DNA of 59,109 nt from a virus, in the IMG/VR virus record IMGVR_UViG_3300029992_000006, positions 1-59,109 of that record, one strand, 5' to 3'. The notes beneath the pieces are model-generated. The model was not told the origin of the DNA, searched no databases, and saw only the letters and a list, made by a program, of their open reading frames with translations. Position 1 is the stretch's first letter. The number at the start of each line of letters is the position of its first letter. Made by a program: the position numbers and the translations under genes. Shown piece by piece: positions 59-57,977 of this stretch.

Positions 59-370
59 ATGGAAGCCCCACTTAGTCTGACCTTGCTAACCCGTCGTCTA
101 TTAGGGTTAGACGACGGTCTATTAATGACGTTGGATGGCGACGGCTACGGTAGCGGCGGCAGCGGCTACGGCAACGGCTACGGCTACGGCGGCGGCGGCG
201 ACGGCGACGGCTACGGCGGCGGCAGCGACATCGGATACGGCTACGGCAGCGGCGGCAGCGGCTACGGCAACGGCTACGGCTACGGCGGCGGCGGCGACGG
301 CGACGGCTACGGCAGCGGCGACGGCGACGGCGACGGCGGCGGCAGCAGCGGCGACGGCTACGGCAACTAA
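59..370 (+). CDS. Glycine-rich repeat mini-protein, copy 1
   Basis: A 103-residue protein begins at ATG 59, which is a weak start without a clear ribosome binding site. After a short variable start it carries the leader LTRRLLGLDDGLLMTLDGDG and then a low-complexity tail in which Gly alternates with Asp, Tyr, Ser, Asn or Gly (GGC alternating with NAC, AGC or GGC codons). A unit of about 71 bases is repeated inside it, starting at 143 and at 239. The same leader, in the same frame, opens the proteins at 1451 and 3177. Most base differences between copies are silent, which argues for translation. The stop (368-370) lies just ahead of the ribosome binding site of the gene at 384, so the two may be translationally coupled. 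Function is unknown. It could instead be a structured untranslated leader. Confidence 0.6.
   Translation: MEAPLSLTLLTRRLLGLDDGLLMTLDGDGYGSGGSGYGNGYGYGGGGDGDGYGGGSDIGYGYGSGGSGYGNGYGYGGGGDGDGYGSGDGDGDGGGSSGDGYGN
86..145 (+). repeat. 60-base hairpin/leader repeat, copy 1
   Basis: This 60-base block is shared with 1469-1528 and 3195-3254. It contains an inverted repeat, CCGTCGTCTA (91-100) with TAGACGACGG (108-117), around a 7-base loop. A second pairing that would exclude it, CTAACCC (86-92) with GGGTTAG (104-110), is also possible in this copy. The block runs into the GGC-rich tract. It is both coding (leader of the glycine-rich protein) and potentially a stable RNA hairpin. Confidence 0.8.
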
Positions 371-383
371 TAAGGAGAAAGAC

Positions 384-1220
384 ATGCTACAAAACCAAGC
401 CATGATAGCAAATCTCAACATTCGCTCTTGGACAGCGCGCAAGCACGACCGCGCTGTCTCCAACGAAGTGGACGCTGCTCACAACGCACAGGAAGGTGGA
501 CGCTACAACAAGCTGCTGATCGATAAGTCAGCACTCGACCCGCTCACCAAGCATGCAGGGCGTGTACGGGAATATCACTATTCCCTCACCTTGCCATGGG
601 GCGACAACGGCGACCGGCTACTACCAGCCAAGGCGTACATGGACTACACCGCAACTATGAGGAAACTAAAAGATGAATATGCGTCCTATGCTCGTACATT
701 TGAGGCTTCCTACCCCCAACTCGTTGCCGATGCTCGGCAGCGCCTGGGCACCATGTACGATGCCAACGATTATCCCCCTATCAGCGACATACGCGACCGC
801 TTTGATATCCGCGTGGCATTTCAACCAGTCCCTGACGCTAAGGACTTTCGCGTCGATGTGGGGGACGAAGCTCTAGCTGAGATCAAAGCGAGCATCAACG
901 AAGCCGTAGCGGAACGTCAAGCCGGCGCAGTCAAAGAGTGCTGGGTACGGCTCAACGATGTAATCGGCAAGCTGTACACCATGATGATCAAGGACAAGCC
1001 AATCTTTCGTGACAGCATCATCGACAACGTGAAGGACTTGATCAGTATGCTGCCAAAGCTGAATATCACGAACGATCCTGCATTAAACGAAGTCTGCAAA
1101 AAGGTGTCCTTAGTCGTCAACTCAACTTCGCCACATTATCTACGCAAAAGCGCACGAATGCGCAACGACGTGGCGCTGGCTGCAGAAGGGGTGCTGCGTG
1201 AAATCGCCGATCATACTTGA
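384..1220 (+). CDS. Conserved phage protein, partner of the VWA metallopeptidase (DUF3150-like)
   Basis: A 278-residue soluble protein starts at ATG 384 behind a good AAGGAG site; an upstream extension through the GGC tract in this frame is low-complexity and is rejected. The N-terminus, with NLNIRSW, a Lys-His-Asp pair and a GRYNKLLID segment, resembles a family that in many tailed phages sits beside a MoxR-type AAA ATPase and a VWA-like metallopeptidase, as recalled from general knowledge. A VWA-like gene does follow at 2079, but no MoxR ATPase is seen in the window. The role is unknown; participation in a chaperone-like or processing complex is inference. Helical, charged segments dominate the C-terminal half. 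Confidence 0.7.
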   Translation: MLQNQAMIANLNIRSWTARKHDRAVSNEVDAAHNAQEGGRYNKLLIDKSALDPLTKHAGRVREYHYSLTLPWGDNGDRLLPAKAYMDYTATMRKLKDEYASYARTFEASYPQLVADARQRLGTMYDANDYPPISDIRDRFDIRVAFQPVPDAKDFRVDVGDEALAEIKASINEAVAERQAGAVKECWVRLNDVIGKLYTMMIKDKPIFRDSIIDNVKDLISMLPKLNITNDPALNEVCKKVSLVVNSTSPHYLRKSARMRNDVALAAEGVLREIADHT

Positions 1221-1449
1221 TGAATTTACCGATATGGACCCGACAAGAGACCCAGGCTACACAGCCATGAAGAATGCCCTCCATCGAATGCGCAATGGAA
1301 CCGACCAATTTGCAACACAAGCGGCACAGATTCTGACGATGAACACCAGCCAACGGAAAGCCTTCTATCGGCGCATGAAGAACGGCATGAATACCCCATT
1401 CATCAACGAGGTGCGGATGCAGACATTGGTGATGCGGCTAGGAGGATGA
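1198..1449 (+). CDS. Small hypothetical phage protein
   Basis: An 83-residue protein begins at GTG 1198, which overlaps the end of the previous gene by 23 bases and has AAGGGG upstream. ATG 1234 is an alternative start without an obvious ribosome binding site. The protein is rich in Met, Arg and Asn and looks helical; no motif is recognised. Its stop (1447-1449) sits next to the start of the second glycine-rich mini-gene, and the GGAGGA at 1441-1446 serves that next gene. Confidence 0.6.
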   Translation: MKSPIILDEFTDMDPTRDPGYTAMKNALHRMRNGTDQFATQAAQILTMNTSQRKAFYRRMKNGMNTPFINEVRMQTLVMRLGG

Positions 1450-1450
1450 G

Positions 1451-1669
1451 ATGGATACCCTCTTTAAACTAACCCGTCGTCTATTGGGGCTAGACGACGG
1501 GATATTAATGACGTTGGATGGCGACGGCTACGGCAGCTACCACGGCAACGGCAGCGGCTACGGCGTCAGCGGCTACGGCGACGGCGGCGGCAGCGGCGGC
1601 GGCGTAGGCGGCGACGGCAACAACGGCTACGGCGACGGCGACGGCCATGGTAGAGGTTACGACAATTAA
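1451..1669 (+). CDS. Glycine-rich repeat mini-protein, copy 2
   Basis: A 72-residue protein starts at ATG 1451 with a strong GGAGGA site four bases upstream, the best translation signal of the three copies. After MDTLFK comes the conserved leader LTRRLLGLDDGILMTLDGDG. The tail is again Gly alternating with Tyr, Asp, Ser, Asn and also His and Val. It ends in TAAGGAG, so its stop codon is fused to the ribosome binding site of the gene at 1680. The leader matches copies at 59 and 3177 in frame and register, while the tails differ in length and order. Function is unknown. Confidence 0.7.
   Translation: MDTLFKLTRRLLGLDDGILMTLDGDGYGSYHGNGSGYGVSGYGDGGGSGGGVGGDGNNGYGDGDGHGRGYDN
1469..1528 (+). repeat. 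60-base hairpin/leader repeat, copy 2
   Basis: The stem is CCCGTCGTCTA (1473-1483) with TAGACGACGGG (1491-1501), 11 perfect pairs around a 7-base loop. The T-to-C change in this copy, relative to the others, falls in the loop and is silent in the Gly-rich frame. The alternative CTAACCC pairing is broken here by one mismatch, so the 11-pair stem is the conserved structure. Confidence 0.85.
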
Positions 1670-1679
1670 GGAGCAAGAA

Positions 1680-1901
1680 ATGGCCAAAACGGAATTACCG
1701 AAGACCCACTACTACGATATGGCACTTACCCTACTCGCACTGGAAAACAAGAAATGGATATCGAACAAAAATACATATAACCACTGGGACCCCGAAACGC
1801 GGCTCTGGTGGATCAAGCGAGTAGAGGAAGAAGCCGCTAAAGGCTTGCCAATGGCAACTGAATTGGTTGCCAAGGCATTGATGATAAGGATGACGAAATG
1901 A
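1680..1901 (+). CDS. Small hypothetical phage protein
   Basis: A 73-residue protein begins at ATG 1680 behind AAGGAGCAAGAA, whose first bases are the stop of the glycine-rich gene. It is rich in Trp, Tyr and Lys (a HWDPETRLWWIKR segment) and looks compact and helical. No family is recognised. The end overlaps the next start as ATGA at 1898-1901, an arrangement that suggests translational coupling. Confidence 0.7.
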   Translation: MAKTELPKTHYYDMALTLLALENKKWISNKNTYNHWDPETRLWWIKRVEEEAAKGLPMATELVAKALMIRMTK

Positions 1902-2077
1902 ATACACATTACAAAGTATATTGGGAGATCGATATTTTCGCCGACTCCCCAGAAGCTGCTGCAGAGGTAGCATTGATGGCCCAGCGCGACTCTTCCTCGA
2001 CATGCACCTATTTCACAGTGTACGATGTCCGTACCGGAACTTCGATTGACGTCGACCTAAACACAAGCGGAGAATAA
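1898..2077 (+). CDS. Small hypothetical phage protein (59 aa)
   Basis: This short gene encodes 59 residues beginning MNTHYKVYWEIDIFAD and ending just before the VWA gene. The pattern of alternating hydrophobic residues, then an SPEAAAEVALMAQR helix, then a strand with YFTVYD, is typical of small phage proteins with a beta-alpha-beta fold that act on or resemble 'DUF' domains; this is only a structural impression. ATGA overlap with the preceding gene and one base spacing to the following ATG (2079) place it in the same operon. Confidence 0.7.
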   Translation: MNTHYKVYWEIDIFADSPEAAAEVALMAQRDSSSTCTYFTVYDVRTGTSIDVDLNTSGE

Positions 2078-2078
2078 G

Positions 2079-3176
2079 ATGAACGAACAAGCCAAAGCCA
2101 AAACCAAGCTCACCCGCGCCCGAGCAACGCTGATCCTCGATCAGCCGTTCTTCGGTGCGCTGGCTCTGCGCCTGCACCTCGTCGAAGACGAAAACACAAA
2201 GACCATGTCTGTGGACGGTAAGACGATCCGCTACAACCCGGACTTCGTGAACGAGTGCAGCGCTGGCCTCACCAAAGCCGTCGTCGCCCATGAGGTCATG
2301 CACTGCGTCCTTGATCATATGGGACGGCTTGCCGAACGCGACCACCGTAAATGGAATCAGGCTGCAGACTACGCCATCAATCAGATTCTGGAAGATGTCG
2401 GTTTCAGCTTCGAAGGCACCGGCCTTCTCAACCCTGCATTCAAAGGTAAATCCGCTGACGAGATTTACACACTCCTGCCGGATACCCCAGAAGGGCAGAG
2501 CGACCCACTCGACAATATGACCCCAGGCGATCCTGACCCTGCGGCCAAGGCTGAAGCTGCGCGCGACTGGAAAGTTGCCACCATCCAAGCCAAGGAAGCT
2601 GCCAAGATCATGGGCAAGCTACCACAAGAAATCGAACGCCTGATCGATGGCCTGCTGGCCGCACAGGTCGACTGGAAAGAAGTCTTGCGCCGCTTCATCA
2701 ACGAACGCAGCAAGGACGACTACTCTTGGGCACGTCCGAACCGGCACATGATCGTGCATGGCGTGTACATGCCCAGCCTGTATAGCGAGAACATGGGCGA
2801 CATCGTGATCGGCATCGATACATCGGGCAGCATCAGCAACAAGGTACTGGAAAAATTCAGCGCGGAGTGCGACGGAATCATCGCTGAAACGCGACCGGCG
2901 AACGTGCATGTCATCTATTGTGATGCCGCTGTAAACCGGGTACAGGTCTTCGCTCGCGGCGAGCCATTTAAACTGGAAGCATGCGGCGGAGGTGGCACGC
3001 GGTTCTCGCCCGTATTTGAAAAGGTCGAAGAACTGGGCATCCGTCCGGTGTGCCTCGTCTACTTGACGGACTTGTACGGGGATCATTCTTTTGATCCTCC
3101 TGATTATCCGACGCTCTGGTGCTGCACGACTTACAATGTTGGGGCATTCGGCGAGACCGTAAGAATAGAGATTTAA
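2079..3176 (+). CDS. VWA-like metallopeptidase (DUF2201 type)
   Basis: The protein has 365 residues. A zinc-peptidase motif HEVMH lies at residues 71-75 followed by a conserved helix, the hallmark of the DUF2201 N-terminal domain. The C-terminal half is a von Willebrand A-like domain with a metal-ion site DTSGS at residues 247-251 (Asp247, Ser249, Ser251). Members of this family are frequent in phages and bacteria beside MoxR ATPases. Here the neighbour at 384 fits that module, but the ATPase is missing. The substrate is unknown; a role in processing or remodelling phage or host protein complexes is inference. The start ATG follows a GGAGAATAAG site and overlaps nothing. Confidence 0.85.
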   Translation: MNEQAKAKTKLTRARATLILDQPFFGALALRLHLVEDENTKTMSVDGKTIRYNPDFVNECSAGLTKAVVAHEVMHCVLDHMGRLAERDHRKWNQAADYAINQILEDVGFSFEGTGLLNPAFKGKSADEIYTLLPDTPEGQSDPLDNMTPGDPDPAAKAEAARDWKVATIQAKEAAKIMGKLPQEIERLIDGLLAAQVDWKEVLRRFINERSKDDYSWARPNRHMIVHGVYMPSLYSENMGDIVIGIDTSGSISNKVLEKFSAECDGIIAETRPANVHVIYCDAAVNRVQVFARGEPFKLEACGGGGTRFSPVFEKVEELGIRPVCLVYLTDLYGDHSFDPPDYPTLWCCTTYNVGAFGETVRIEI

Positions 3177-3278
3177 ATGTGTGCCCTCGTTAAACTAACC
3201 CGTCGTCTATTGGGGTTAGACGACGGGATATTAATGACGTTGGATGGCGACGGCGACGGCTACGGCAGCGGTAGTTAA
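3177..3278 (+). CDS. Glycine-rich repeat mini-protein, copy 3 (short)
   Basis: A 33-residue protein starts at ATG 3177, immediately after the stop of the metallopeptidase gene. MCALVK is followed by the conserved leader LTRRLLGLDDGILMTLDGDG, then only GDGYGSGS before the stop. It shows that the leader is kept while the glycine tail can shrink almost to nothing. The stop at 3276-3278 is fused to the AAGGAG of the next gene. Function is unknown. Confidence 0.6.
   Translation: MCALVKLTRRLLGLDDGILMTLDGDGDGYGSGS
3195..3254 (+). repeat. 60-base hairpin/leader repeat, copy 3
   Basis: The stem CCCGTCGTCTA (3199-3209) pairs with TAGACGACGGG (3217-3227), 11 perfect pairs around a 7-base loop. The preceding TTAAA is shared with copy 2. 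The short glycine tract that follows suggests loss of repeat units. Confidence 0.85.
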
Positions 3279-3286
3279 GGAGAAAT

Positions 3287-3463
3287 ATGATGAGAACTCA
3301 ATTCGTACCAATAACTCCAGGAGGATCAGCCTGTGTACATCTGGCCTCGAAAACGGAGGTCGAGGCGTGGAAGAAACTGCTGAAAGATGCGGCGCACATG
3401 CCATACAAAACCAAAGAGAATTTCCAGAAGCGTGGATATACCGTTGAAGAATGGCCGGAGTAG
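3287..3463 (+). CDS. Small hypothetical phage protein (58 aa)
   Basis: This gene encodes 58 residues from ATG 3287 (or 3290), behind AAGGAGAAAT. The sequence begins MMRTQFVPITPGG and has a helical KTEVEAWKKLLKDAAHMP segment, then a GYTVEEW end, like many small early phage proteins. No family is recognised. It is the gene directly served by the third glycine-rich leader, and the next gene takes its ribosome binding site from the last codons here (GGAG at 3458-3461). Confidence 0.65.
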   Translation: MMRTQFVPITPGGSACVHLASKTEVEAWKKLLKDAAHMPYKTKENFQKRGYTVEEWPE

Positions 3464-3468
3464 ATAAA

Positions 3469-3681
3469 ATGAAAGTCAAAGAACTGATCTTGCGCTTGCA
3501 AGCCTGCGATCCTGAATTGATAGTCGTCGTAGACGGCTACGAAGGGGGCGTGACCGAAGTGCAGAACATTGTAGATCGCAAGCCCCTCAAACTGAACGTC
3601 AACGAAGATTGGTGGTATGGCGAGCACGAGATCGATAGCGCCGACCATGACTGCTTTGCAGTTTATATTTCAAGGGGCTAG
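3469..3681 (+). CDS. Conserved small phage protein (MKVKEL family)
   Basis: A 70-residue protein starts at ATG 3469, chosen over ATG 3451 because GGAG lies eight bases upstream and the resulting MKVKELILRLQACDPE start matches a family of short phage proteins I recall only as uncharacterised. The segment VVDGYEGG is the most family-like part. It ends just before the gene at 3685. Function is unknown. Confidence 0.7.
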   Translation: MKVKELILRLQACDPELIVVVDGYEGGVTEVQNIVDRKPLKLNVNEDWWYGEHEIDSADHDCFAVYISRG

Positions 3682-3684
3682 ATA

Positions 3685-4002
3685 ATGGGCTACCGTTCAG
3701 ATGTCGCATACGTGATCGCCGGCAAGAAGGAAGCCATCATTGCCTTCCTGCTGGTGTGCAAAATGGATCACCCTGAGGTCAACCTCGCTATCGACGAATG
3801 TACAATCGGAAGACTGGAGAAAGGCGTGCTTTTCATCGGGTTCTGCGCCAGCGATGTGAAGTGGTGTCCTAATTACGAAGACGTTAAATGTCATGACGTT
3901 CTTTGGAGTCTCGCCCAAGACCAAGAAACCTTGGAAGGTCAAAAGTGCATTATCGGAGAAGACGACAACGACATCACCAATGATAATTTTGGGGGATGGT
4001 GA
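3685..4002 (+). CDS. Conserved hypothetical phage protein
   Basis: The protein has 105 residues and begins MGYRSDVAYVIAG. This N-terminus recurs in small acidic proteins of many tailed phages, whose role is not established. The C-terminal half is acidic and ends with GGW. It lies three bases downstream of the previous stop and is followed by an 87-base gap with no gene. Confidence 0.65.
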   Translation: MGYRSDVAYVIAGKKEAIIAFLLVCKMDHPEVNLAIDECTIGRLEKGVLFIGFCASDVKWCPNYEDVKCHDVLWSLAQDQETLEGQKCIIGEDDNDITNDNFGGW

Positions 4003-4089
4003 GTTTGAGCTTTGGAGCCGTTTATCGATTAGTCGTAGCCTCAACATTGATCTGAATCTTGGAAAAGAGCATGATATACGGGAGACAGC

Positions 4090-4797
4090 ATGAGCGGAAT
4101 TAAGGAGCAAATGGAAGTGGCGTATGCTCTATCAGATTGCATACTCGCCGAAGTCGAACAAACCGAGTTCACATTCGATGAACTTTCCGAACGCGCCAAG
4201 GAAAAGGTGCGCGGTAGGTACCGCGAAACCCAGCTCGACTATGAATGGTGGGAGTATGTATATGAGGACGCTGTAACGCTCGGCGCATTAATCGGTATTG
4301 AGGTCGGGACAAATAGATCAGCTCCGAAGAACGGAAAATCCTACACTGAACCAGACATCAGTTTCTCTGGCTTCTGCAATCAAGGTGACGGCTGCTGCTA
4401 CTCCGGCACTCTCCACATTGATCAACTGCAAGGATGCGAGGCTAAGGTCAAGGCAGAATGCAGTGACCCCCTTCTACTCAGCATAGCCAGAGATGGAGAA
4501 GCCTTGTTTCGAGACATTCTGGTCGCCCGTGTCGCTCAACGTATGCAAGGTGTGGCAAGCGAGGACGCCATGACTGAATACAGCCGTTTCAGCATCATCG
4601 GTAATAGCCGGTATTACGCCACATGCACGGATAACGACGACGAACAATTCGACCTCGATGACTACGTCTCATCATTCGCCGACTGGATTTACGGACGCCT
4701 CGAAGCCGAGCATGACTACCTAATGAGCGATGAATGTATCGACGAGTCGATCAAGCAGTATGAGACGCTTTATGACGAATTCGGCTCTGAAGTCTAA
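4090..4797 (+). CDS. Conserved hypothetical phage protein (antitoxin-like family)
   Basis: The protein has 235 residues. The N-terminal half contains FDELSERAKEKVR, then DYEWWEYVYEDA and ISFSGFCNQGDG. This succession (Phe-Asp-Glu-Leu-Ser, paired Trp, then Ser-Gly-Phe-x-x-Gln-Gly-Asp) is typical of a widespread phage family that is often annotated without a proven function. The C-terminal part is acidic. The start ATG 4090 follows GGGAGACAGC. Its position at the end of the left block, before the T-tract, suggests the end of a transcription segment, which is inference. Confidence 0.65.
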   Translation: MSGIKEQMEVAYALSDCILAEVEQTEFTFDELSERAKEKVRGRYRETQLDYEWWEYVYEDAVTLGALIGIEVGTNRSAPKNGKSYTEPDISFSGFCNQGDGCCYSGTLHIDQLQGCEAKVKAECSDPLLLSIARDGEALFRDILVARVAQRMQGVASEDAMTEYSRFSIIGNSRYYATCTDNDDEQFDLDDYVSSFADWIYGRLEAEHDYLMSDECIDESIKQYETLYDEFGSEV

Positions 4798-4799
4798 GT

Positions 4800-4828
4800 A
4801 AGACAATAGAAAGATAGAAGGGTATACT
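4800..4828 (+). promoter_or_regulatory. Possible sigma70-type promoter
   Basis: AAGACA (4800-4805) and TATACT (4823-4828) are separated by 17 bases, a reasonable match to the bacterial consensus. It would read through the T-tract into the HNH gene. This is a weak, sequence-only prediction. Confidence 0.25.
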
Positions 4829-4933
4829 TAGATTCAACGCTCGACCACGGACATTGTTAGCAAGGCTTCACATGCTGAATGGCGGGTGCTACCCCGTTCG
4901 ACCAACTTCTGTAAGGGAGATTCAGCAGGTGAA

Positions 4934-4958
4934 TTTTTTTTTTTTTTTTTTTTTTTTT
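4934..4958 (+). repeat. Uninterrupted 25-T tract
   Basis: A run of 25 T residues lies in the 176-base gap between 4797 and 4974, 16 bases before the HNH start. No strong hairpin precedes it, so it is not a normal intrinsic terminator. Such tracts are prone to replication, transcription and sequencing slippage, so the length may vary or be partly artefactual. The rest of this gap holds only the possible promoter at 4800-4828. Confidence 0.9.
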
Positions 4959-4973
4959 GTCTGGAAATCTAAG

Positions 4974-5462
4974 ATGAGTCTAACGCAGCAGAGAGTGAGA
5001 GAGCTTTTCGATTATGACCCAGAGACCGGGGTTATGACCCGGCGCATTACGCCTTCCGCCCGCGCCAAGAAAGGCGAGATCGCCGGCTACGACGATGGTA
5101 AGGGTTATCTTCAAGTATCAATCGCCGGCAAAAAATACCGGCTCCACCGGCTCGTTTGGTTCTGGGTTCATGGTGTATGGCCAAAGAACGATGTTGACCA
5201 TCGGGACCGTAACCGCTCGAACAACCGGATCAAGAATTTAATGGCTGCGACGCGTGCCGAAAACTGCCATAACGCAGGGCTTGCGGCGCATAACACCTCT
5301 GGGTTCAAAGGCGTCAGCTGGTCAAAGAACATGAACAAGTGGGAAGCCAGGATCACCCTGAATGACTGCGGAAAAGTCCTCGGGTATTTCGACACACCAG
5401 AGCAAGCTTCTGCGGCGTACCTCGCCGCCAAACCAGCATATCACCCAACGGCGCCGATATGA
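4974..5462 (+). CDS. HNH endonuclease with AP2 DNA-binding domain
   Basis: A 162-residue protein begins at ATG 4974; an in-frame upstream extension would add a poly-Phe stretch from the T-tract and is rejected. An HNH domain spans roughly residues 50-95, with the LHRLVW and DVDHRDRNRSNNRIKNL segments typical of phage homing-type HNH nucleases. An AP2-like domain follows (about 105-155: GFKGVSW, KWEARI, LGYFDT, A-x-AYxxA). Enzymes of this kind nick or cut DNA and often spread as selfish genes among phages. Its stop overlaps the next start as ATGA, and the odd T-tract lies at its upstream border, which would fit an insertion, though this is inference. Confidence 0.88.
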   Translation: MSLTQQRVRELFDYDPETGVMTRRITPSARAKKGEIAGYDDGKGYLQVSIAGKKYRLHRLVWFWVHGVWPKNDVDHRDRNRSNNRIKNLMAATRAENCHNAGLAAHNTSGFKGVSWSKNMNKWEARITLNDCGKVLGYFDTPEQASAAYLAAKPAYHPTAPI

Positions 5463-6178
5463 AAACAATCCAGATAGTCCCAATCCCTCAGTGGTCAGCC
5501 TCAAAGCTCAAGACCTTCAGTCAATGCAAGCTCCGCACTCAACTTCAGTACGGGCAAAAGATTCCTGAGCCACCACGAGAGTTGAAGCCCGGGCAAACAG
5601 AATTTCCGAATGAACGCGGCAGCCGCATCCATTTGGAGGCCGAAAACTATGCGCAAGGGCAAGGCGAGCTTACTCCGGCACTGACAAAATTCCGCCCCGA
5701 GTTCGACTCACTGAAACAGCTCTATGCGGATGGGAAAGTAGAGATCGAGCAGGAGTGGGCGTTTGATCGTCGATGGGTTCCAGTCGAGTGGCGGTCTCCT
5801 GATGCCTGGCTTCGCGCGAAGCTCGACGTGATCGTTTTTCTGTCTGAGTATGAGGCAGTAATTGCGGACCATAAGACGGGCAAAAAGTTTGGCAATGAAG
5901 TCAGCCATATGCAGCAGATGCAGATTTATCAGCTGATCGCATTCCTACGCTACCCGAAGCTCGAATTTATAACGGTAGAACTTTGGTACCTCGATCAGGA
6001 CGATCTGACCCAGGCATCGTTCACTCGTGCCCAGGGGCTGCGATTTAAACCAGGCATCGAACGCCAGGCGCGAGCGCTAACCGACTGTACTGAGTTCCCT
6101 GCAAATCCCAACATTTTTACCTGCAAGTGGTGCCCCTACGGACCGACCGGCACCGGCCACTGTGAAAGGGGTGTGTGA
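5459..6178 (+). CDS. PD-(D/E)XK nuclease with Fe-S cysteines (RecB/Cas4-like)
   Basis: The protein has 239 residues. The core motifs of the RecB-like nuclease fold are visible: a conserved Asp in the LDVIVF strand, the ADHKTGKK motif, and QMQIYQL (Q-x3-Y). Cys23 and the C-terminal trio Cys222, Cys225 and Cys235 have the spacing used by AddB/Cas4-type nucleases to hold a 4Fe-4S cluster. It probably acts as an exonuclease in phage recombination or replication, together with the helicase at 6393 and the candidate DNA-binding protein at 11564. The start overlaps the HNH stop by four bases. Confidence 0.85.
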   Translation: MKTIQIVPIPQWSASKLKTFSQCKLRTQLQYGQKIPEPPRELKPGQTEFPNERGSRIHLEAENYAQGQGELTPALTKFRPEFDSLKQLYADGKVEIEQEWAFDRRWVPVEWRSPDAWLRAKLDVIVFLSEYEAVIADHKTGKKFGNEVSHMQQMQIYQLIAFLRYPKLEFITVELWYLDQDDLTQASFTRAQGLRFKPGIERQARALTDCTEFPANPNIFTCKWCPYGPTGTGHCERGV

Positions 6179-6396
6179 TGGGTGCATCAGACTGGGCATC
6201 AGGCACTGGCGGCTTGGCTTCCTCCGTGCGAAACCCCGGAAAAGCTAAAGCCAAGAGGGAAGAAAAGACGGGAGCGGTCATGGCTAAGAAAATCGCCAGT
6301 CAGCTCGACTATGAATCAGCGCGCCGTGCCAGCCAGAACAAGTTCTCGCCGGAAGAGATGCAGGCGGCAATTCTGAAATTCCAGGAGGCAACATGA
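6178..6396 (+). CDS. Small hypothetical protein upstream of the helicase
   Basis: A 72-residue protein starts at ATG 6178, sharing the last base of the previous stop; GTG 6175 and the internal ATG before KKIASQ (about 6280) are alternatives. The first 35 residues are Gly/Ser and Lys/Arg-rich and look disordered. The second half (LDYESARRASQNKFSPEEMQAAI) is helical. No family is recognised. It overlaps the helicase start by four bases. Confidence 0.6.
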   Translation: MGASDWASGTGGLASSVRNPGKAKAKREEKTGAVMAKKIASQLDYESARRASQNKFSPEEMQAAILKFQEAT

Positions 6397-7751
6397 TCTA
6401 CAAACCAATGGCCCATCAGAAAGTCTCCCTGAAGGCGATGGAGAAGACCGACATCGTTTTCGACATGAGTGATCCGGGATCGGGCAAGACATTCGTGCAG
6501 ATCATGGCCTACGCCAAACGTCGCAAACGTGCTGGCGGCTGCGCCCTGGTCATCGCCCCGAAGTCCCTGCTACGTTCGGCATGGGAGGATGACTTTCGGA
6601 AATTCGCCCCGCAGATCATCTGCTCAGTAGCCTATGCAGAGAACCGGGATAAAGCCTTCGCTGCCGACGCCGATGTGTACATCACTAACATCGACGCGGT
6701 AACATGGCTACTGAAACAGAAGCCAGCATTCTTCAAGAAGTTTGACACTCTGATCATCGACGAGGTGAGCGCGTATAAGCACCACACCAGCGCCCGGTCC
6801 AAGGCGTTGAACAAGATCAAGAAGTATTTTCGGTACCGTTCGGCCATGTCCGGCACGCCGAACAGCAACACGATCTGCGACGTGTGGAATCCAGTACAGA
6901 TTCTCGACGACGGCAAACGGCTCGGCAGGCAGTTCTTCGGCTTCCGTGCAGCGGTCTGCGCGCCGGAACAAGTCGGCCCACGTCCTGAAATGCTTAAATG
7001 GACAGACAAAGAAGGCAGCGAAGAAGTGGTGTATGGACTGATCGCCGATATCACGATCCGGCACCGCTTCGAGGACTGCATCGATATTCCGGCCACGCAC
7101 AGCTACACGATGACCTACCACCTGACACCCAGGCAGAAGAAGGCATACCGCGAAATGGAGTCGACACAGATCATGTGGCTGAAGAAAGAAGCTGCGGTAA
7201 CTGCGATCAACGCAGCCGCCGTCACCACAAAGCTTTTGCAAATTTCTAGCGGTGCCGTGTATGAATCGTCGGAGAAATATCACGTTGTCGATACAGGCCG
7301 ATATGAGCTGATCCTTGATCTCGTCGAAGACCGCAAACACCCGCTTGTGTTCTTCCTGTGGAAACACCAGCGCGACGAACTCGTCAAACAGGCCGAGAAG
7401 CGCGGTCTGACGTACTGCGTGCTGGATGGACAGGCCACGGATAACGAGCGCACAGCAATGGTCAAGCACTATCAGGCAGGATTTTACGACGTGATGTTCG
7501 CCCACCCAAAGAGCGCAGCACATGGGCTGACGCTGACCCGTGGCAGCACTACGATCTGGGCCTCACCGACGTATGACCTGGAGCACTTCAGCCAGGGCAA
7601 CAAGCGGCAGGCGCGCGCCGGCCAGAAGGACAAGACCGAGATCATCGTGATCTTGGCCGAAGGCACGATTGAAACGAAGGTCTACGCACGACTGATGGAG
7701 AAGAACACGAAAATGAGCAATTTACTGGACTTGTTTGGGGAGGCGGCATGA
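6393..7751 (+). CDS. SNF2/DEAD-type superfamily II helicase
   Basis: The protein has 452 residues and two RecA-like halves. Seen motifs are His8-Gln9 near the start, Walker A DPGSGKT (27-33), the Walker B/DEAH-type box DEVS (123-126), motif III SGTPNSN, and in the C-terminal half the ASPTYDLEHFSQGNKRQAR region containing the motif VI arginines. Gene order, compactness and motifs match the small SNF2-like helicases of phage replication modules. It would translocate on or remodel DNA near the phage polymerase. Overlaps of four bases at both ends place it in one translational unit with its neighbours. Confidence 0.9.
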   Translation: MIYKPMAHQKVSLKAMEKTDIVFDMSDPGSGKTFVQIMAYAKRRKRAGGCALVIAPKSLLRSAWEDDFRKFAPQIICSVAYAENRDKAFAADADVYITNIDAVTWLLKQKPAFFKKFDTLIIDEVSAYKHHTSARSKALNKIKKYFRYRSAMSGTPNSNTICDVWNPVQILDDGKRLGRQFFGFRAAVCAPEQVGPRPEMLKWTDKEGSEEVVYGLIADITIRHRFEDCIDIPATHSYTMTYHLTPRQKKAYREMESTQIMWLKKEAAVTAINAAAVTTKLLQISSGAVYESSEKYHVVDTGRYELILDLVEDRKHPLVFFLWKHQRDELVKQAEKRGLTYCVLDGQATDNERTAMVKHYQAGFYDVMFAHPKSAAHGLTLTRGSTTIWASPTYDLEHFSQGNKRQARAGQKDKTEIIVILAEGTIETKVYARLMEKNTKMSNLLDLFGEAA

Positions 7752-7981
7752 ATCTGAGTACGCCTGAAAATGTCGAGCTACTGCAAGCAGCAGTCGAGGC
7801 AAAAGTTGCTTACTGGGACGCAATCTGCAATCTGGAACATGCGTTAAAAGTTGATGATGATCTCTCTGATCGTGCTAGTGATGCAATCCATGAATGGATT
7901 GAGTCAGCCGCCGTAAGCGGCGGAAACGATATCACAATGGACGACCTCAAAAGCGTAATCGAATTATCGGAGGTCGAATGA
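7748..7981 (+). CDS. Small acidic hypothetical protein
   Basis: A 77-residue acidic protein sits between helicase and polymerase with four-base overlaps on both sides. It appears all-helical with many Asp and Glu residues and ends in SEVE. No motif is recognised. Its tight coupling to the replication genes hints at an accessory role, which is inference. Confidence 0.65.
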   Translation: MNLSTPENVELLQAAVEAKVAYWDAICNLEHALKVDDDLSDRASDAIHEWIESAAVSGGNDITMDDLKSVIELSEVE

Positions 7982-12368: not shown

Positions 12369-12423
12369 CGCACTCTAGTCAGCCCCTGATAGAGTGCGAG
12401 CCATAAAAAAAAAAAAAAAAAAA
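12369..12423 (+). repeat. Inverted repeat followed by 19-A tract
   Basis: CGCACTCTA (12369-12377) pairs with TAGAGTGCG (12390-12398), with a further CAG/CTG pairing inside the loop. Six bases later an uninterrupted run of 19 A begins (12405-12423). On the plus strand this is not a terminator because the tract is A, not T. On the minus strand the T run precedes the stem. It mirrors the T-tract at 4934-4958 in that both lie directly before a small accessory gene. Confidence 0.8.
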
Positions 12424-15447: not shown

Positions 15448-15629
15448 ACAGTATCTCCACCCCACGCCTACTGACACTCGCCGCATGGGCGGAAACAATA
15501 TGCGGGGAGCACGCCCCATGTATTACCACGCTGCGCCGTTGGGCCAGGGAAGGCAGAATCACCCCGCAGCCGGTCAAATACGGCAAGTTGTACTTTGTCG
15601 AACGGCACGCCAAATATCAAGGTGACTGA
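15444..15629 (+). CDS. Small Xis-like excisionase
   Basis: A 61-residue protein reads TLAAWAETICGEHAPCITT, then LRRWAREGRITPQPVKYG and LYFVERHAKYQ. This matches the lambda/HK022 Xis-like family, with a conserved Trp-Ala and the wing segment LRRWAREGRI. Xis proteins bend DNA beside att and direct the integrase to excision. It ends one base before the integrase ATG. Having two excisionase-like proteins in tandem is a point of interest. Confidence 0.75.
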   Translation: MNSISTPRLLTLAAWAETICGEHAPCITTLRRWAREGRITPQPVKYGKLYFVERHAKYQGD

Positions 15630-15630
15630 A

Positions 15631-16734
15631 ATGAGCCGACTGCGCGACCCGAAGCACAAGGGGTTTCCCCCCAACCTGTACATTAATAGCGCCGGGTATT
15701 TCTTTTACCGAAACACGCTGAACGGCAAGACCAAAGGACTCGGGCGCGACAAAGCCAATGCCTTCCGCGAGGCGCGAAACGCCAACGCGGTAGTGGCCAC
15801 CCAGGCCCCCTCTCCGCTGGTCGACTGGGTATCCGGCGTCAAGCAGCATACCCTCAAAGAATGGGTGCCATTGTACAAGGAGCTGTGGATCGGGAAGAAG
15901 AAACCCGCCGAACAGACATTGCGCATGCAGCTCACCTACCTTGACCGTATCGCTAACGCCGAGTTTTCCTGGATGGAACTGAAGGCTGTTACCACGGCGC
16001 ATGTCGCTAAATTCGTCGATGCCGTCGAGCAAGAAAGTGGTGCTGCCACTGCTGGTTTTATTCGGTCCCGTCTCAGCGACGTATTCAAGATGGCAATCTC
16101 CAAGGGCGAGGTAGCGGACGGTAAAAACCCCGTCGATTCCACTTACCGGCCAGCATACGAAGTCAAGCGCGACCGACTATCGCTTGAGCAGTATCATGCT
16201 GTCAGGGAAGTCGCGCAGCCGTGGCTGGTCGATGCGATGGACTTGGCCCTGCTGACTGCACAGCGCCGGGAAGAGATCGCTGGAGCTATGTTCGCCGACT
16301 TCCGTGATGGGTTCATCTACTTCGTCCCTGGTAAGATGCAGGGAAAAGTGCGGCTGCAGCAGGACGCCAGCATCGGTCTTGCCGTTGTGAACAGGACAAT
16401 TGCCGATGTGATCAAGCAGTGCCGAAACCGTGCGGTCAGCCAATTCATGGTCCACCACCAGAAACGCCACGCGACAGCGAAGCCCGGTGACGGGCTTTCG
16501 GTAGCAGCAATCACCCATGCGTTCAGTACAGCTTATAAAAAAGCCAAGGTTGTGCCGACAGTTGGACGAACGCCTGCTTCTTTCCATGAAATACGCAGTT
16601 TGTCCGAAAGATTGTATCGGGATCAGTATGGTCCTGAGTTCGCCCAGGCAATGTTGGGGCATAAGAATGCTACCATGACGGCGGAATATGACGATTTGCG
16701 CGGTTCCGGCTGGCAAGTTATTAGCGCCAAGTAG
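15631..16734 (+). CDS. int: Tyrosine recombinase (phage integrase)
   Basis: The protein has 367 residues. The N-terminus, beginning RDPKHKGFPPNLY, is an arm-binding beta-domain like that of lambda integrase. A core-binding helical region spans about 70-170. The catalytic domain has Arg in TAQRREE, HEIR near 319-322, His344 in LGHKN and the nucleophile Tyr353 in AEYDD. Start ATG 15631 is chosen over an earlier in-frame start because the earlier one lies within the xis gene. Its 3' neighbour region (16735-16980) is repeat-rich and is the natural place for attP. Confidence 0.93.
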   Translation: MSRLRDPKHKGFPPNLYINSAGYFFYRNTLNGKTKGLGRDKANAFREARNANAVVATQAPSPLVDWVSGVKQHTLKEWVPLYKELWIGKKKPAEQTLRMQLTYLDRIANAEFSWMELKAVTTAHVAKFVDAVEQESGAATAGFIRSRLSDVFKMAISKGEVADGKNPVDSTYRPAYEVKRDRLSLEQYHAVREVAQPWLVDAMDLALLTAQRREEIAGAMFADFRDGFIYFVPGKMQGKVRLQQDASIGLAVVNRTIADVIKQCRNRAVSQFMVHHQKRHATAKPGDGLSVAAITHAFSTAYKKAKVVPTVGRTPASFHEIRSLSERLYRDQYGPEFAQAMLGHKNATMTAEYDDLRGSGWQVISAK

Positions 16735-18746: not shown

Positions 18747-18937
18747 TCGACCACCTCGCAGCCGAACCGACCGGGTTCAATTACACCGACAAGCCACCAC
18801 GCGGTGTGAAGCTAACCCTGCTCACTAAGGGCAAGGTTCAGGTCACGGGCGTGTGGGTGGACGACGGCAGCTTCATTGCGTGGGCACCTCTGCTTCGCCG
18901 AAATCGGGCCAAGGAAAGGGAACTGGGGATTTTATGA
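18743..18937 (+). CDS. Small hypothetical protein
   Basis: A 64-residue protein starts at ATG 18743. It holds strand-rich VKLTLLTKGKVQVTGVW followed by a basic end (LRRNRAKERELGIL). The strands with GSFIAWAPL may form a small beta-barrel. Unknown. The stop overlaps the next gene. Confidence 0.6.
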   Translation: MIDHLAAEPTGFNYTDKPPRGVKLTLLTKGKVQVTGVWVDDGSFIAWAPLLRRNRAKERELGIL

Positions 18938-45350: not shown

Positions 45351-46639
45351 ACGAAGAACTCCTGCACGGTAGGTGCGGTGATGTAAAGGTTGCGTACTAC
45401 GGGGGCGACGACATAGAGTTCTTGGATCAGCCCAGGCTGCTCGGCGGTAATGGTTACGCTCGCAGAGACAGTGCCGACTGCGCCCGTCGCGACGTTTCCA
45501 GCGAGCGCGGTGATCGGTGCGGCAGCGCCTGTGCCGCCAGCGCCGTTGTTCCCTGCCAGCGCTGAAGAAATGGTTGGCGCGGTTAAGCCCGCCGCGCTTG
45601 TGGCAGTAATTCCTGCGAGACTTGCGGCCCGCGCCTGAGTAATAGCGCCGACGCCGCCTGCACCACTTGCGCCGGCGAGCGACGAAGAAATGGTCGGCGT
45701 AATTGAACCGACTGCACTCGTACCAGCCACCCCTGTGGGCGTCAGCGAGGTAGACGATATGGCAGAGCCAACTGCGCCAGTCGCAGCTAGGCCAGTGACA
45801 GCAAAGGTTTTGGAGGGGATAACTGTTCCGACCGCGCCCGCGCCAGCCATACCACTGAGTGCAGCGCCTCCTGGGATGATGACTGCGCCCGTCGCAGCTG
45901 TGCCAGATACGCCGGTAAGTGCTGAGGAGGTAGACGCTGTAGCGGAGCCGACTGCGCCCGTTCCGGCCACGCTGGTTATAGCTGCAATTCTGGACGAGGT
46001 GAGCGATCCAGCCGCCCCCATTCCAGCCACGCCCATAAGCGCAGGAGATGTCGCTATCTGCCCGGTTGCTCCCGCGCCTGCGACGCCCGTGATCGCCGAG
46101 GCCGAAAATACCGAAGCTGTACCTACTGCCCCCGTACCGGCCACACCTGTCAGTGTCGAGGAGATAGACGGAGCCGCTACCCCTACCCCGCCCGTTCCCG
46201 CTACGCCGGTCAGCCCGACAGCAAGGGAAGAAACTGCTGTACCTACTGCCCCCGTACCGGCCACACCTGTCAGTGTCGAGGAGATAGACGGAGCCGCTAC
46301 CCCTACCCCGCCCGTTCCCGCTACGCCGGTCAGCCCGACAGCAAGGGAAGAAACTGCTGCACCTGACGCCCCCGTACCGGCCACACCGCTCACAGCTTGC
46401 GAGTACGCTAACAATCCCGACGCGCCCGTACCGGCAACGCCTGAAATCGTCGGAGCAGTCGTGTGTGTTACGCCACCAGCCCCGCCCGTACCGGCCAGCC
46501 CCGCGAGACCCATCGCCAGCGCGAAGAGAACCGAGCCGACCACGCCGGACATGGAAACACCCGTCAACCCAACGGTGACGTTTCTGTTTCCTGTCTGCCC
46601 CGCGAAAGGGGCGCTTGCGACCGGCGAAAAGCCAAGCAT
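45347..46639 (-). CDS. Gly-Thr repeat virion protein
   Basis: A 430-residue protein. After MLGFSPVASAPFAGQ it consists of about 20 repeats of a LTGVAGTGAVG type separated by Ser/Ala linkers of eight to ten residues. Similar repeats are seen in the protein at 31847 and in marine phage tail proteins, as I recall. The final 40 residues (ITAEQPGLIQELYVVAPVV, then LYITAPTVQEFFV) form a conserved C-terminus. A tail or fibre component is probable. It contains an exact 120-base tandem duplication. Confidence 0.65.
   Translation of the reverse strand: MLGFSPVASAPFAGQTGNRNVTVGLTGVSMSGVVGSVLFALAMGLAGLAGTGGAGGVTHTTAPTISGVAGTGASGLLAYSQAVSGVAGTGASGAAVSSLAVGLTGVAGTGGVGVAAPSISSTLTGVAGTGAVGTAVSSLAVGLTGVAGTGGVGVAAPSISSTLTGVAGTGAVGTASVFSASAITGVAGAGATGQIATSPALMGVAGMGAAGSLTSSRIAAITSVAGTGAVGSATASTSSALTGVSGTAATGAVIIPGGAALSGMAGAGAVGTVIPSKTFAVTGLAATGAVGSAISSTSLTPTGVAGTSAVGSITPTISSSLAGASGAGGVGAITQARAASLAGITATSAAGLTAPTISSALAGNNGAGGTGAAAPITALAGNVATGAVGTVSASVTITAEQPGLIQELYVVAPVVRNLYITAPTVQEFFV
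46116..46355 (-). repeat. Exact 2 x 120-base tandem duplication in the Gly-repeat gene
   Basis: Two adjacent 120-base units (46116-46235 and 46236-46355) appear identical, encoding 40 residues each. Their identity at the base level, including silent positions, points to a recent duplication by slippage or recombination. It keeps the frame. Confidence 0.9.
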
Positions 46640-57205: not shown

Positions 57206-57378
57206 GGTTACGTCGGTCTGGGTCCCTCACCTACCCCTCGTCATCAGCCGCCCCCACTTCGGTTTCCGCACCCAGCGCCCGGATAAGGAGTCTCTTTTAC
57301 CCCGGCCACGCAGCAAGGAACTCCAAGCATTCCGAACCCCGCTCCGAGTTCTTGGCGCTCGCCACCACACATCCAACC

Positions 57379-57426
57379 ACAAGGACACGGTGAGGCTGTG
57401 TCCTTGGTCTGTCTGCCTTGGTGTTG
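57379..57426 (+). repeat. Hairpin repeat, diverged copy 1
   Basis: A diverged version of the 49-base element at 57701 and 57929. AAGGACAC pairs with GTGTCCTT, and the T-rich tail is replaced by GGTCTGTCTGCCTTGG. It lies 27 bases before the ATG of the first early gene. Confidence 0.7.
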
Positions 57427-57700: not shown

Positions 57701-57749
57701 CTGCAAGGACGCGGTAAGGCTGCGTCCTTGCTCTTTTTGCTTTTGTGTT
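57701..57749 (+). terminator. 49-base hairpin repeat, copy 2 (terminator-like)
   Basis: GCAAGGACGC (57703-57712) pairs with GCGTCCTTGC (57722-57731) around GGTAAGGCT, followed by TCTTTTTGCTTTT. This is a good intrinsic terminator layout. The 49 bases are identical to the copy at 57929-57977. Confidence 0.85.
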
Positions 57750-57928: not shown

Positions 57929-57977
57929 CTGCAAGGACGCGGTAAGGCTGCGTCCTTGCTCTTTTTGCTTTTGTGTT
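57929..57977 (+). terminator. 49-base hairpin repeat, copy 3 (terminator-like)
   Basis: An exact copy of 57701-57749, with the same ten-pair stem and T-rich tail. It lies three bases after the stop of the 51-residue gene. Exact identity suggests recent duplication or selection for the sequence itself. Confidence 0.85.

What the first reader, a model, noticed from the sequence alone, without database searches (positions are those of the whole stretch)
59..3278. Three hairpin-led glycine-rich mini-genes interleaved with phage genes
The same 60-base block (hairpin plus leader) opens three separate mini-genes at 59, 1451 and 3177. Each has a variable-length Gly-x tail and each stop is fused or next to the ribosome binding site of the next gene. 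Across the leader most base changes are silent (TTA/TTG, TTA/CTA, GGT/GGG, GGT/GGC) with one Leu/Ile change, so a peptide seems to be under selection. At the same time the changes fall in the hairpin loop or at its end, so an RNA structure may also be kept. I do not recognise this arrangement. It may be a regulatory leader, a structural or adhesive peptide, or a mobile mini-cassette. This is the strongest candidate for an undescribed system here.
Basis: partly seen in the sequence, partly recalled or inferred. Interest (0 to 1): 0.72.

Follow-up and report, generated by a model that had tools for sequence, protein, structure and literature searches.

The report
Phage glycine-repeat mini-gene family
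A phage related to those of Oxalobacteraceae bacteria carries three copies of a tiny protein gene with a strongly conserved start and a fast-changing glycine-repeat tail; related phages carry their own copies, and similar tails sit on many other phage mini-proteins whose job is unknown.

Summary
Three mini-ORFs (59-370, 1451-1669, 3177-3278) share a near-identical ~60-base leader, have Gly-rich tails of 76, 48 and 9 residues, and each stop abuts the next gene's ribosome binding site.

Homologues: 11 copies in 4 phages (window; Herminiimonas sp. CN; a Janthinobacterium MAG contig; one IMG/VR contig). The leader LTRRLLGL[DTA]DGxL[MI]TLDG is under purifying selection (pooled between-phage pN/pS 0.16). 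The hairpin is not conserved: 10-11 bp in the window, 4-7 bp in the other 8 copies, no compensatory pair. So these are protein-coding genes, not a family-wide RNA element.

Copies differ in number and position and appear to homogenise within a genome (94 identical tail bases shared by the two Janthinobacterium copies). The gene behaves like a portable cassette: its first bases often hold the stop of the preceding gene, and it ends next to the following gene's start.

The tail is not unique: a capped scan of IMG/VR gave 120 stretches; about 90 complete mini-ORFs in 75 of them have other leaders plus G-[Y/D/N/S]n tails. The 7 copies tested match no Pfam/PHROG family, and my paper searches found none described. 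Most likely: small disordered early phage proteins, docking leader plus Gly-x tail. Function inferred, not shown.

The parts
59..370 (+). Mini-gene copy 1 (W1), 103 aa: leader of 27 aa, Gly-rich tail of 76 aa
   Evidence: the upstream gene (seen in L016) has its stop 19 bases after this start
1451..1669 (+). Mini-gene copy 2 (W2), 72 aa: leader 24, tail 48
3177..3278 (+). Mini-gene copy 3 (W3), 33 aa: leader 24, tail 9; start abuts the stop of the gene before
86..145 (+). 60-base core of copy 1 (95% to copy 3)
1469..1528 (+). 60-base core of copy 2 (98% to copy 3)
3195..3254 (+). 60-base core of copy 3
91..117 (+). Perfect 10-bp inverted repeat inside leader codons, 7-base loop (window lineage only)
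1474..1500 (+). Same inverted repeat, copy 2 (11 bp if one base is added on each side)
3200..3226 (+). Same inverted repeat, copy 3 (11 bp if one base is added on each side)
140..367 (+). Gly-rich tail of copy 1; contains an internal direct duplication (141-271 vs 237-367, 117 of 131 bases)
1523..1666 (+). Gly-rich tail of copy 2
3249..3275 (+). Gly-rich tail of copy 3
371..386 (+). Ribosome binding site and start codon of the next gene (DUF3150-like, 384-1220), directly after the stop of copy 1
1670..1682 (+). Ribosome binding site and start of the next gene (1680-1901), directly after the stop of copy 2
3279..3289 (+). Ribosome binding site and start of the next gene (3287-3463), directly after the stop of copy 3

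Best explanation
These are real protein-coding mini-genes of one family. Each encodes a short protein with a conserved ~24-residue leader (predicted helix in residues 2-11, then ...DGxLxTLDG) and a probably disordered tail in which roughly every second residue is Gly and the others are mostly Tyr, Asp, Asn, Ser or His. The family spreads within a phage genome by duplication and is homogenised by recombination between copies. It sits at gene junctions as a self-contained boundary cassette: the first ~25 bases usually carry stops in both other frames, and in 7 of 11 copies the preceding gene ends there, and its own stop mostly lies close to the next gene's ribosome binding site. Supported here: coding selection, copy and position turnover, homogenisation, junction anatomy. 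Inferred: the leader docks to a phage or host partner and the Gly-x tail acts as a flexible multivalent spacer, during early infection.
For: Homologues in three other phages with broadly the same gene order. pN 0.109 against pS 0.666 over 18 leader codons. Tail amino-acid pattern kept although Gly codons differ: mainly GGC in W, H and P1; mainly GGG in both J copies; mixed in P2-P4. Ser is AGC/AGT in W and TCC in J. J1 and J2 share 94 identical tail bases including one odd Arg and pair in the tree (96/98) though their sites correspond to H1 and H2. H1 and H2 have the same TAAATCAGGAGAAAGACATG end before different genes. 9 of 11 copies have stops in both other frames within 25 bases, against 33 of 226 control ORFs. 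AlphaFold2: helix 2-11, residues 22-72 under pLDDT 50. Other phages carry leader + G-x mini-ORFs.
Against: No expression or phenotype data. Docking and multivalency are not tested. Tail length runs from 9 to 76 residues, so long tails cannot be essential in every copy. P2-P4 tails are only 35-40% Gly. Copies are related, so the frame-stop count is not 11 independent events; it was noticed after the fact, and two copies (P3, J2) lack one of the stops. P1 and J1 have no ribosome binding site between their stop and the next start. The AlphaFold2 model is poor overall (mean pLDDT 43.6). W1-3 can be explained by recent duplication without conversion.
Confidence: 0.5

Rival explanations
1. A selfish or purely architectural mini-cassette: translated, but its value lies in carrying gene boundaries (stop, ribosome binding site) or in providing homology for recombination between gene modules, not in an activity of the peptide.
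For: In the window, copies 2 and 3 lie beside small genes not found in the fetched loci of the relatives (g1198; g3287 and g3469: no tblastn hit in L025, L047, L056 or L057 at E<=1). VWA-g3685 is an uninterrupted junction in L047 but holds copy 3 plus two genes in the window. Signs of intragenomic homogenisation. Some other Gly-x loci also hold several copies (15 of 113 loci with two or more complete ORFs, a few of them doubtful).
Against: Does not explain leader conservation at the amino-acid level or Gly-x tails kept with different codons.
Confidence: 0.25
2. An RNA regulatory leader or attenuator: the hairpin is the functional element and the ORF is secondary.
For: In the window the stem is 10-11 bp; with the same peptide and phage codon usage, 2 of 20000 synonymous samples reach 10 bp. 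Differences between the three copies avoid the 10-bp stem.
Against: Only 4-7 bp in the other 8 copies; 0 of 10 pairs with a change on both sides, covariation equal to shuffles. The three window copies are close duplicates, so the stem probably arose once. The Asp special to the window supplies two of the stem's bases, as templated quasipalindrome correction would do (mechanism recalled). No T-run follows the stem.
Confidence: 0.08
3. Chance expansion of a GC-rich hexanucleotide repeat that happens to be open.
For: Host-family genomes hold mostly uniform GGCAAC or GGTGAC microsatellites, and a GGCNAC repeat cannot make a stop codon in the Gly frame.
Against: Most listed host repeats are uniform, and the reversed control pattern hits similarly in several of those genomes; in this family the tails are mixed in x and follow a conserved leader in frame in 11 of 11 copies. 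Leader pN/pS is 0.164.
Confidence: 0.04
4. A structural, silk-like or adhesive protein of virion or host surface.
For: Alternating Gly-x resembles silk repeats (recalled).
Against: Copies lie beside DNA-metabolism and MoxR/VWA-type genes, not among the structural genes on the other strand; the leader has no evident signal peptide by eye.
Confidence: 0.05

Closest known systems
Gly-x tail mini-ORFs of other phages in IMG/VR (described here; e.g. L070, L071, L117, L160 with ..LTLDG leaders; L078, L080, L088, L166-L168 with ..RPVG leaders and basic ends)
   Same: Short leader plus G-[Y/D/N/S]n tail, about 50-160 aa, sometimes several copies per locus, usually close to the next gene
   Different: By eye their leaders do not align with LTRRLLGL[DTA]DG; only the (L)TLDG end recurs in some
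Start-associated sequences (SAS/ESAS) of cluster K mycobacteriophages (PMC3203893; passages found by term and read)
   Same: Short repeated block at many gene starts of one phage, some with inverted repeats, kept between related phages
   Different: SAS is a 13-base site upstream of starts, absent from the window (0 matches with up to 2 mismatches); here the repeat is itself a translated gene and its inverted repeat is not conserved
Low-complexity regions of prokaryote and phage proteins (PMC6821194; passages found by term and read)
   Same: Gly enrichment in phage low-complexity regions; GGC bias (reported there for bacteria and archaea)
   Different: That survey reports aromatic residues and Asn as under-represented; here Tyr is the commonest x residue in the set. 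The passages I read describe no such mini-gene class
DUF7666 proteins (PF24703)
   Same: L093 (E 3.9e-29) carries a Gly-x tail after this domain; L123 looks like the same domain by its sequence
   Different: No DUF7666 match in the mini-genes tested; a Pseudomonas phage protein similar to L123's domain has a different repeat (SAASNTG..)

Membership tests
LTRRLLGL mini-gene family (defined here) | Leader LTRRLLGL[DTA]DGxL[MI]TLDG within ~12 residues of the start | tested here: met
   All 3 window copies and 8 others; single-site exceptions are P2 (TSDG) and J2 (FTRR)
LTRRLLGL mini-gene family (defined here) | Purifying selection on the leader | tested here: met
   Pooled between-phage pN/pS 0.164
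Phage Gly-x tail mini-ORFs | Tail with Gly at about every second residue and x mainly Y, D, N, S | tested here: met
   W1-W3 tails 44-55% Gly, x mainly Y, D, S, N, with some GG pairs that break strict alternation; in the 92 ORFs Gly at expected parity 3072 of 3242 and Y+D+N+S 2890 of 3296 x residues (pattern-selected set)
Structured RNA leader / attenuator | Stem conserved with compensatory changes | tested here: not met
   0 of 10 pairs with changes on both sides; covariation 0.124, reached by 500 of 500 shuffles
Start-associated sequences (SAS) | 13-base site 5'-GGGATAGGAGCCC upstream of starts | tested here: not met
   0 matches in the window with up to 2 mismatches; the repeat here is coding
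Known Pfam or PHROG family | Match above cut-off | tested here: not met
   7 of 11 copies tested: Pfam hits only to TrAA12/keratin-type models below their curated cut-offs; best PHROG E 0.08
RiPP precursor (leader + Gly-rich core) | Neighbouring modification enzymes | tested here: inconclusive
   No such enzyme among the neighbours scanned; the whole genome was not scanned for them
Condensate-forming low-complexity protein | Phase separation in cells or in vitro | not testable with these tools
   Only composition is known

The most novel reading that the evidence does not exclude
Gly-x mini-genes are a widespread, undescribed class of early phage proteins: tiny docking leaders fused to evolving G-[Y/D/N/S] tails that act as weak multivalent glue (condensates or tethers) in the infected cell, carried in boundary cassettes that supply both the stop of the gene before and the start region of the gene after, so that they move between gene junctions without harming operons.
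Probability: 0.3. Interest if true: 0.78.

Novelty: new variant of a known kind. Interest (0 to 1): 0.52.

Why it matters
Short low-complexity phage genes are easily dismissed as repeats; BLAST masks such tails, and no Pfam or PHROG family covered the seven copies tested here. This family gives a clean case in which selection on a peptide, tail turnover and movement between gene junctions can be seen in phages with similar gene order. It makes a general question testable: what do the many Gly-x mini-proteins of phages do?

Tried and rejected
RNA element: rejected family-wide. Chance repeat: rejected. Bacterial gene family: 7 of 294 host-family genomes matched at E<=0.01, but only the two phage-bearing ones (G017, G018) match strongly; the other five are weak matches (E 0.001-0.008) inside open frames of 455-699 aa. 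Plasmids and named phages: no match for window copies 1 and 2 or the L025 copy; no match either for the domain of L068, another Gly-x protein. The DUF7666-like domain of L123 did match 180 phage records, none covering 80% of the query. Weak Pfam hits (TrAA12, keratin) are composition only. Papers: nothing on phage Gly-x mini-proteins in the listings of searches; one search gave the SAS comparison. Most subscription papers and bioRxiv preprints are not held.

Its pattern requires NAC codons, which biases x towards Y, D, N and H. A few of the 92 ORFs are wrong-frame or doubtful (for example L104 on the + strand, the second of L092, one of the two of L136). Start codons there are guesses. Both-frame stops were noticed after the fact. 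Only 20 of the 31 loci L023-L053 cover both flanking genes.
Full report
What is there. The window is a 59,109-base IMG/VR virus record with an integrase (15595-16734), terminase, portal and major head protein, so it is probably a temperate tailed phage. Other IMG/VR contigs of the same phage carry 7,603 bases between the window's end and its start (L016 positions 378-7980), so the window is most likely cut from a circular or permuted genome of about 66.7 kb. Its DNA polymerase resembles that of Pseudomonas phages phiR18 and KPP25 at 37-38%. The three mini-genes sit in an early-type (DNA-metabolism side) region, interleaved with a DUF3150-like gene (E 0.00056, below Pfam's cut-off), a DUF2201 metallopeptidase/VWA-like gene and small unknown genes, downstream of a MoxR-like AAA gene. 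That they are expressed early is inferred from place alone.

Checking the observation. The three ORFs, the 60-base core, the Gly-rich tails and the stop/ribosome-binding-site junctions are as described. Copy 1 contains an internal tail duplication, 117 of 131 bases. No further copy was found in the window.

Relatives. Leader searches in IMG/VR found contigs of the same phage and two other phages. A polymerase search returned 32 distinct loci, the same phage among them. Of the 31 loci L023-L053, 20 hold homologues of both genes that flank the mini-genes: two are the window's own phage, two carry the mini-gene (L025, 76% polymerase, and L047), and in the other 16 no mini-gene with this leader was seen. 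A profile search of 16 records agreed: 4 match, two of them the window's own phage (records may be fragments). One genome-contig scan added L056, on a Janthinobacterium MAG contig, and L057, Herminiimonas sp. CN, which carries the same phage genes and mini-genes as L025. In all: 11 copies in 4 phages, here W1-3, H1-2 (L025), P1-4 (L047), J1-2 (L056). Pfam and PHROGs have no family for the 7 copies tested, and named phages and plasmids gave no match for the copies tried.

Peptide or RNA. Over 18 leader codons, pooled between-phage pS is 0.666 and pN 0.109, ratio 0.164; window copies against H1 give pS 0.81-0.92 and pN 0.08-0.10. Pairs are not independent, but the direction is plain. The stem is 10-11 bp in the window, which is rare under synonymous sampling (2 of 20000 reach 10 bp), but only 4-7 bp in the other 8 copies. 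On the 11-row alignment 77.3% of cells pair against a shuffled mean of 76.8%, with no pair changed on both sides. The window's own Asp in LDDG, where the others have Thr or Ala, supplies two of the stem's bases. I read the palindrome as a lineage-specific event, possibly templated correction of a quasipalindrome (mechanism recalled). A later use of the hairpin in this one phage is not excluded.

Tail. The tail pattern is kept while codons change: both J tails use mainly GGG; W, H and P1 mainly GGC; P2-P4 are mixed and less Gly-rich (35-40%). Ser is AGC/AGT in W and TCC in J. That points to selection on the protein, with repeated re-expansion of the DNA. AlphaFold2 gives a helix at residues 2-11 and pLDDT under 50 from residue 22 on (mean 43.6). 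All 11 tails have a net negative charge (-2 to -13) and hold 1 to 12 aromatic residues.

Movement. All four phages have a copy before the DUF3150-like gene (in L056 with a small ORF between). L025, L047 and L056 have copies before the g4090 homologue; the window lacks that one and has copies after g1198 and after the VWA-like gene. In L047 the VWA-like gene runs straight into the g3685 homologue, where the window holds copy 3 plus two small genes not found in the relatives' fetched loci. J1 and J2 lie at the sites of H1 and H2 yet share 94 identical tail bases and group together in a 57-column tree (96/98); W1-3 group together (100/99); H and P copies are unresolved. H1 and H2 share the last bases up to the next start codon although the next genes differ. 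Recent duplication explains W as well as conversion does; for J conversion is the simpler reading.

Junctions. 9 of 11 copies have stops in both other frames within 25 bases of the start, against 33 of 226 control ORFs and 0-25% under peptide-preserving sampling (7 leaders sampled); P3 and J2 lack one. The preceding gene ends inside these bases at H1, H2, P1, P2, P3 and J2, and at W1 as read from L016 (stop at +19); J1 has an ATGA overlap; W2, W3 and P4 start after the preceding stop. This is suggestive only: copies share ancestry and it was noticed after the fact. Downstream, a purine-rich ribosome binding site lies between stop and next start in most copies, but not in P1, which overlaps P2, nor in J1.

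A wider class. They hold 144 Gly-x ORFs in 113 loci; 92 are complete and at most 160 aa, in 75 loci, with a few doubtful ones. Leaders differ but recur..LTLDG..RPVG with basic ends..EDAHSLIG, a DxGACxDGV domain, DUF7666. Fifteen loci have two or more complete ORFs, some doubtful. Of 84 tested, 71 have an ORF of at least 40 aa starting -8 to +60 from the stop on the same strand, 21 of them at -4; 43 have a Shine-Dalgarno-like site. At 695 random points the numbers are 429 and 131, so mere presence of an ORF is a weak signal and the -4 peak and the ribosome binding sites are the stronger ones. In 195 host-family genomes the pattern occurs in 15; in the rows listed, those other than the two phage carriers and G088 are mostly uniform microsatellites (the list is truncated).

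Verdict. A real, conserved, protein-coding phage mini-gene family with cassette-like behaviour, one leader type of a broader Gly-x class that I did not find described. Function remains inference: a docking leader with a disordered multivalent tail is my first choice.

Noticed in passing
L016:378-7980 (between window 59109 and 1): 7,603 bases of the same phage, with a MoxR-like AAA gene among others, are missing from the window; contigs of the same phage carry them.
   Followed up: partly
window 18754-18836 and L016:5117-5199: An 83-base block is repeated at 97.6% identity, one copy in the stretch missing from the window.
   Followed up: no
L039, L041, L045, L047, L048, L051, L052, L053 (polymerase gene): The polymerase match is interrupted by roughly 0.9 kb, near residue 490 in four of them and elsewhere in the others (99 in L039, 393 in L047, 612 in L041 and L053); perhaps introns or inteins.
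   Followed up: no
window 3985-4093: The 3' end of gene 3685-4002 seems to continue in another frame, with similarity by eye to the L047 homologue, near a G run: a frameshift (mutational, sequencing or programmed).
   Followed up: no
window 4934-4958 and 12405-12423: A run of 25 T and a run of 19 A, long for a phage genome.
   Followed up: no
L056:9880-10580: By eye an HNH-like gene seems inserted beside mini-gene J2, with the end of the neighbouring gene repeated on both sides.
   Followed up: no
window 57701-57749 and 57929-57977: A 49-base identical repeat with an inverted-repeat look, and a related third copy at 57377-57425.
   Followed up: no
host-family genomes G033, G051, G073, G095, G114: Many mostly uniform GGCAAC microsatellites, with the reversed control pattern hitting about as often in several of these genomes.
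   Followed up: no
window 46116-46355: A perfect 120-base tandem duplication in an ORF of the opposite strand.
   Followed up: no
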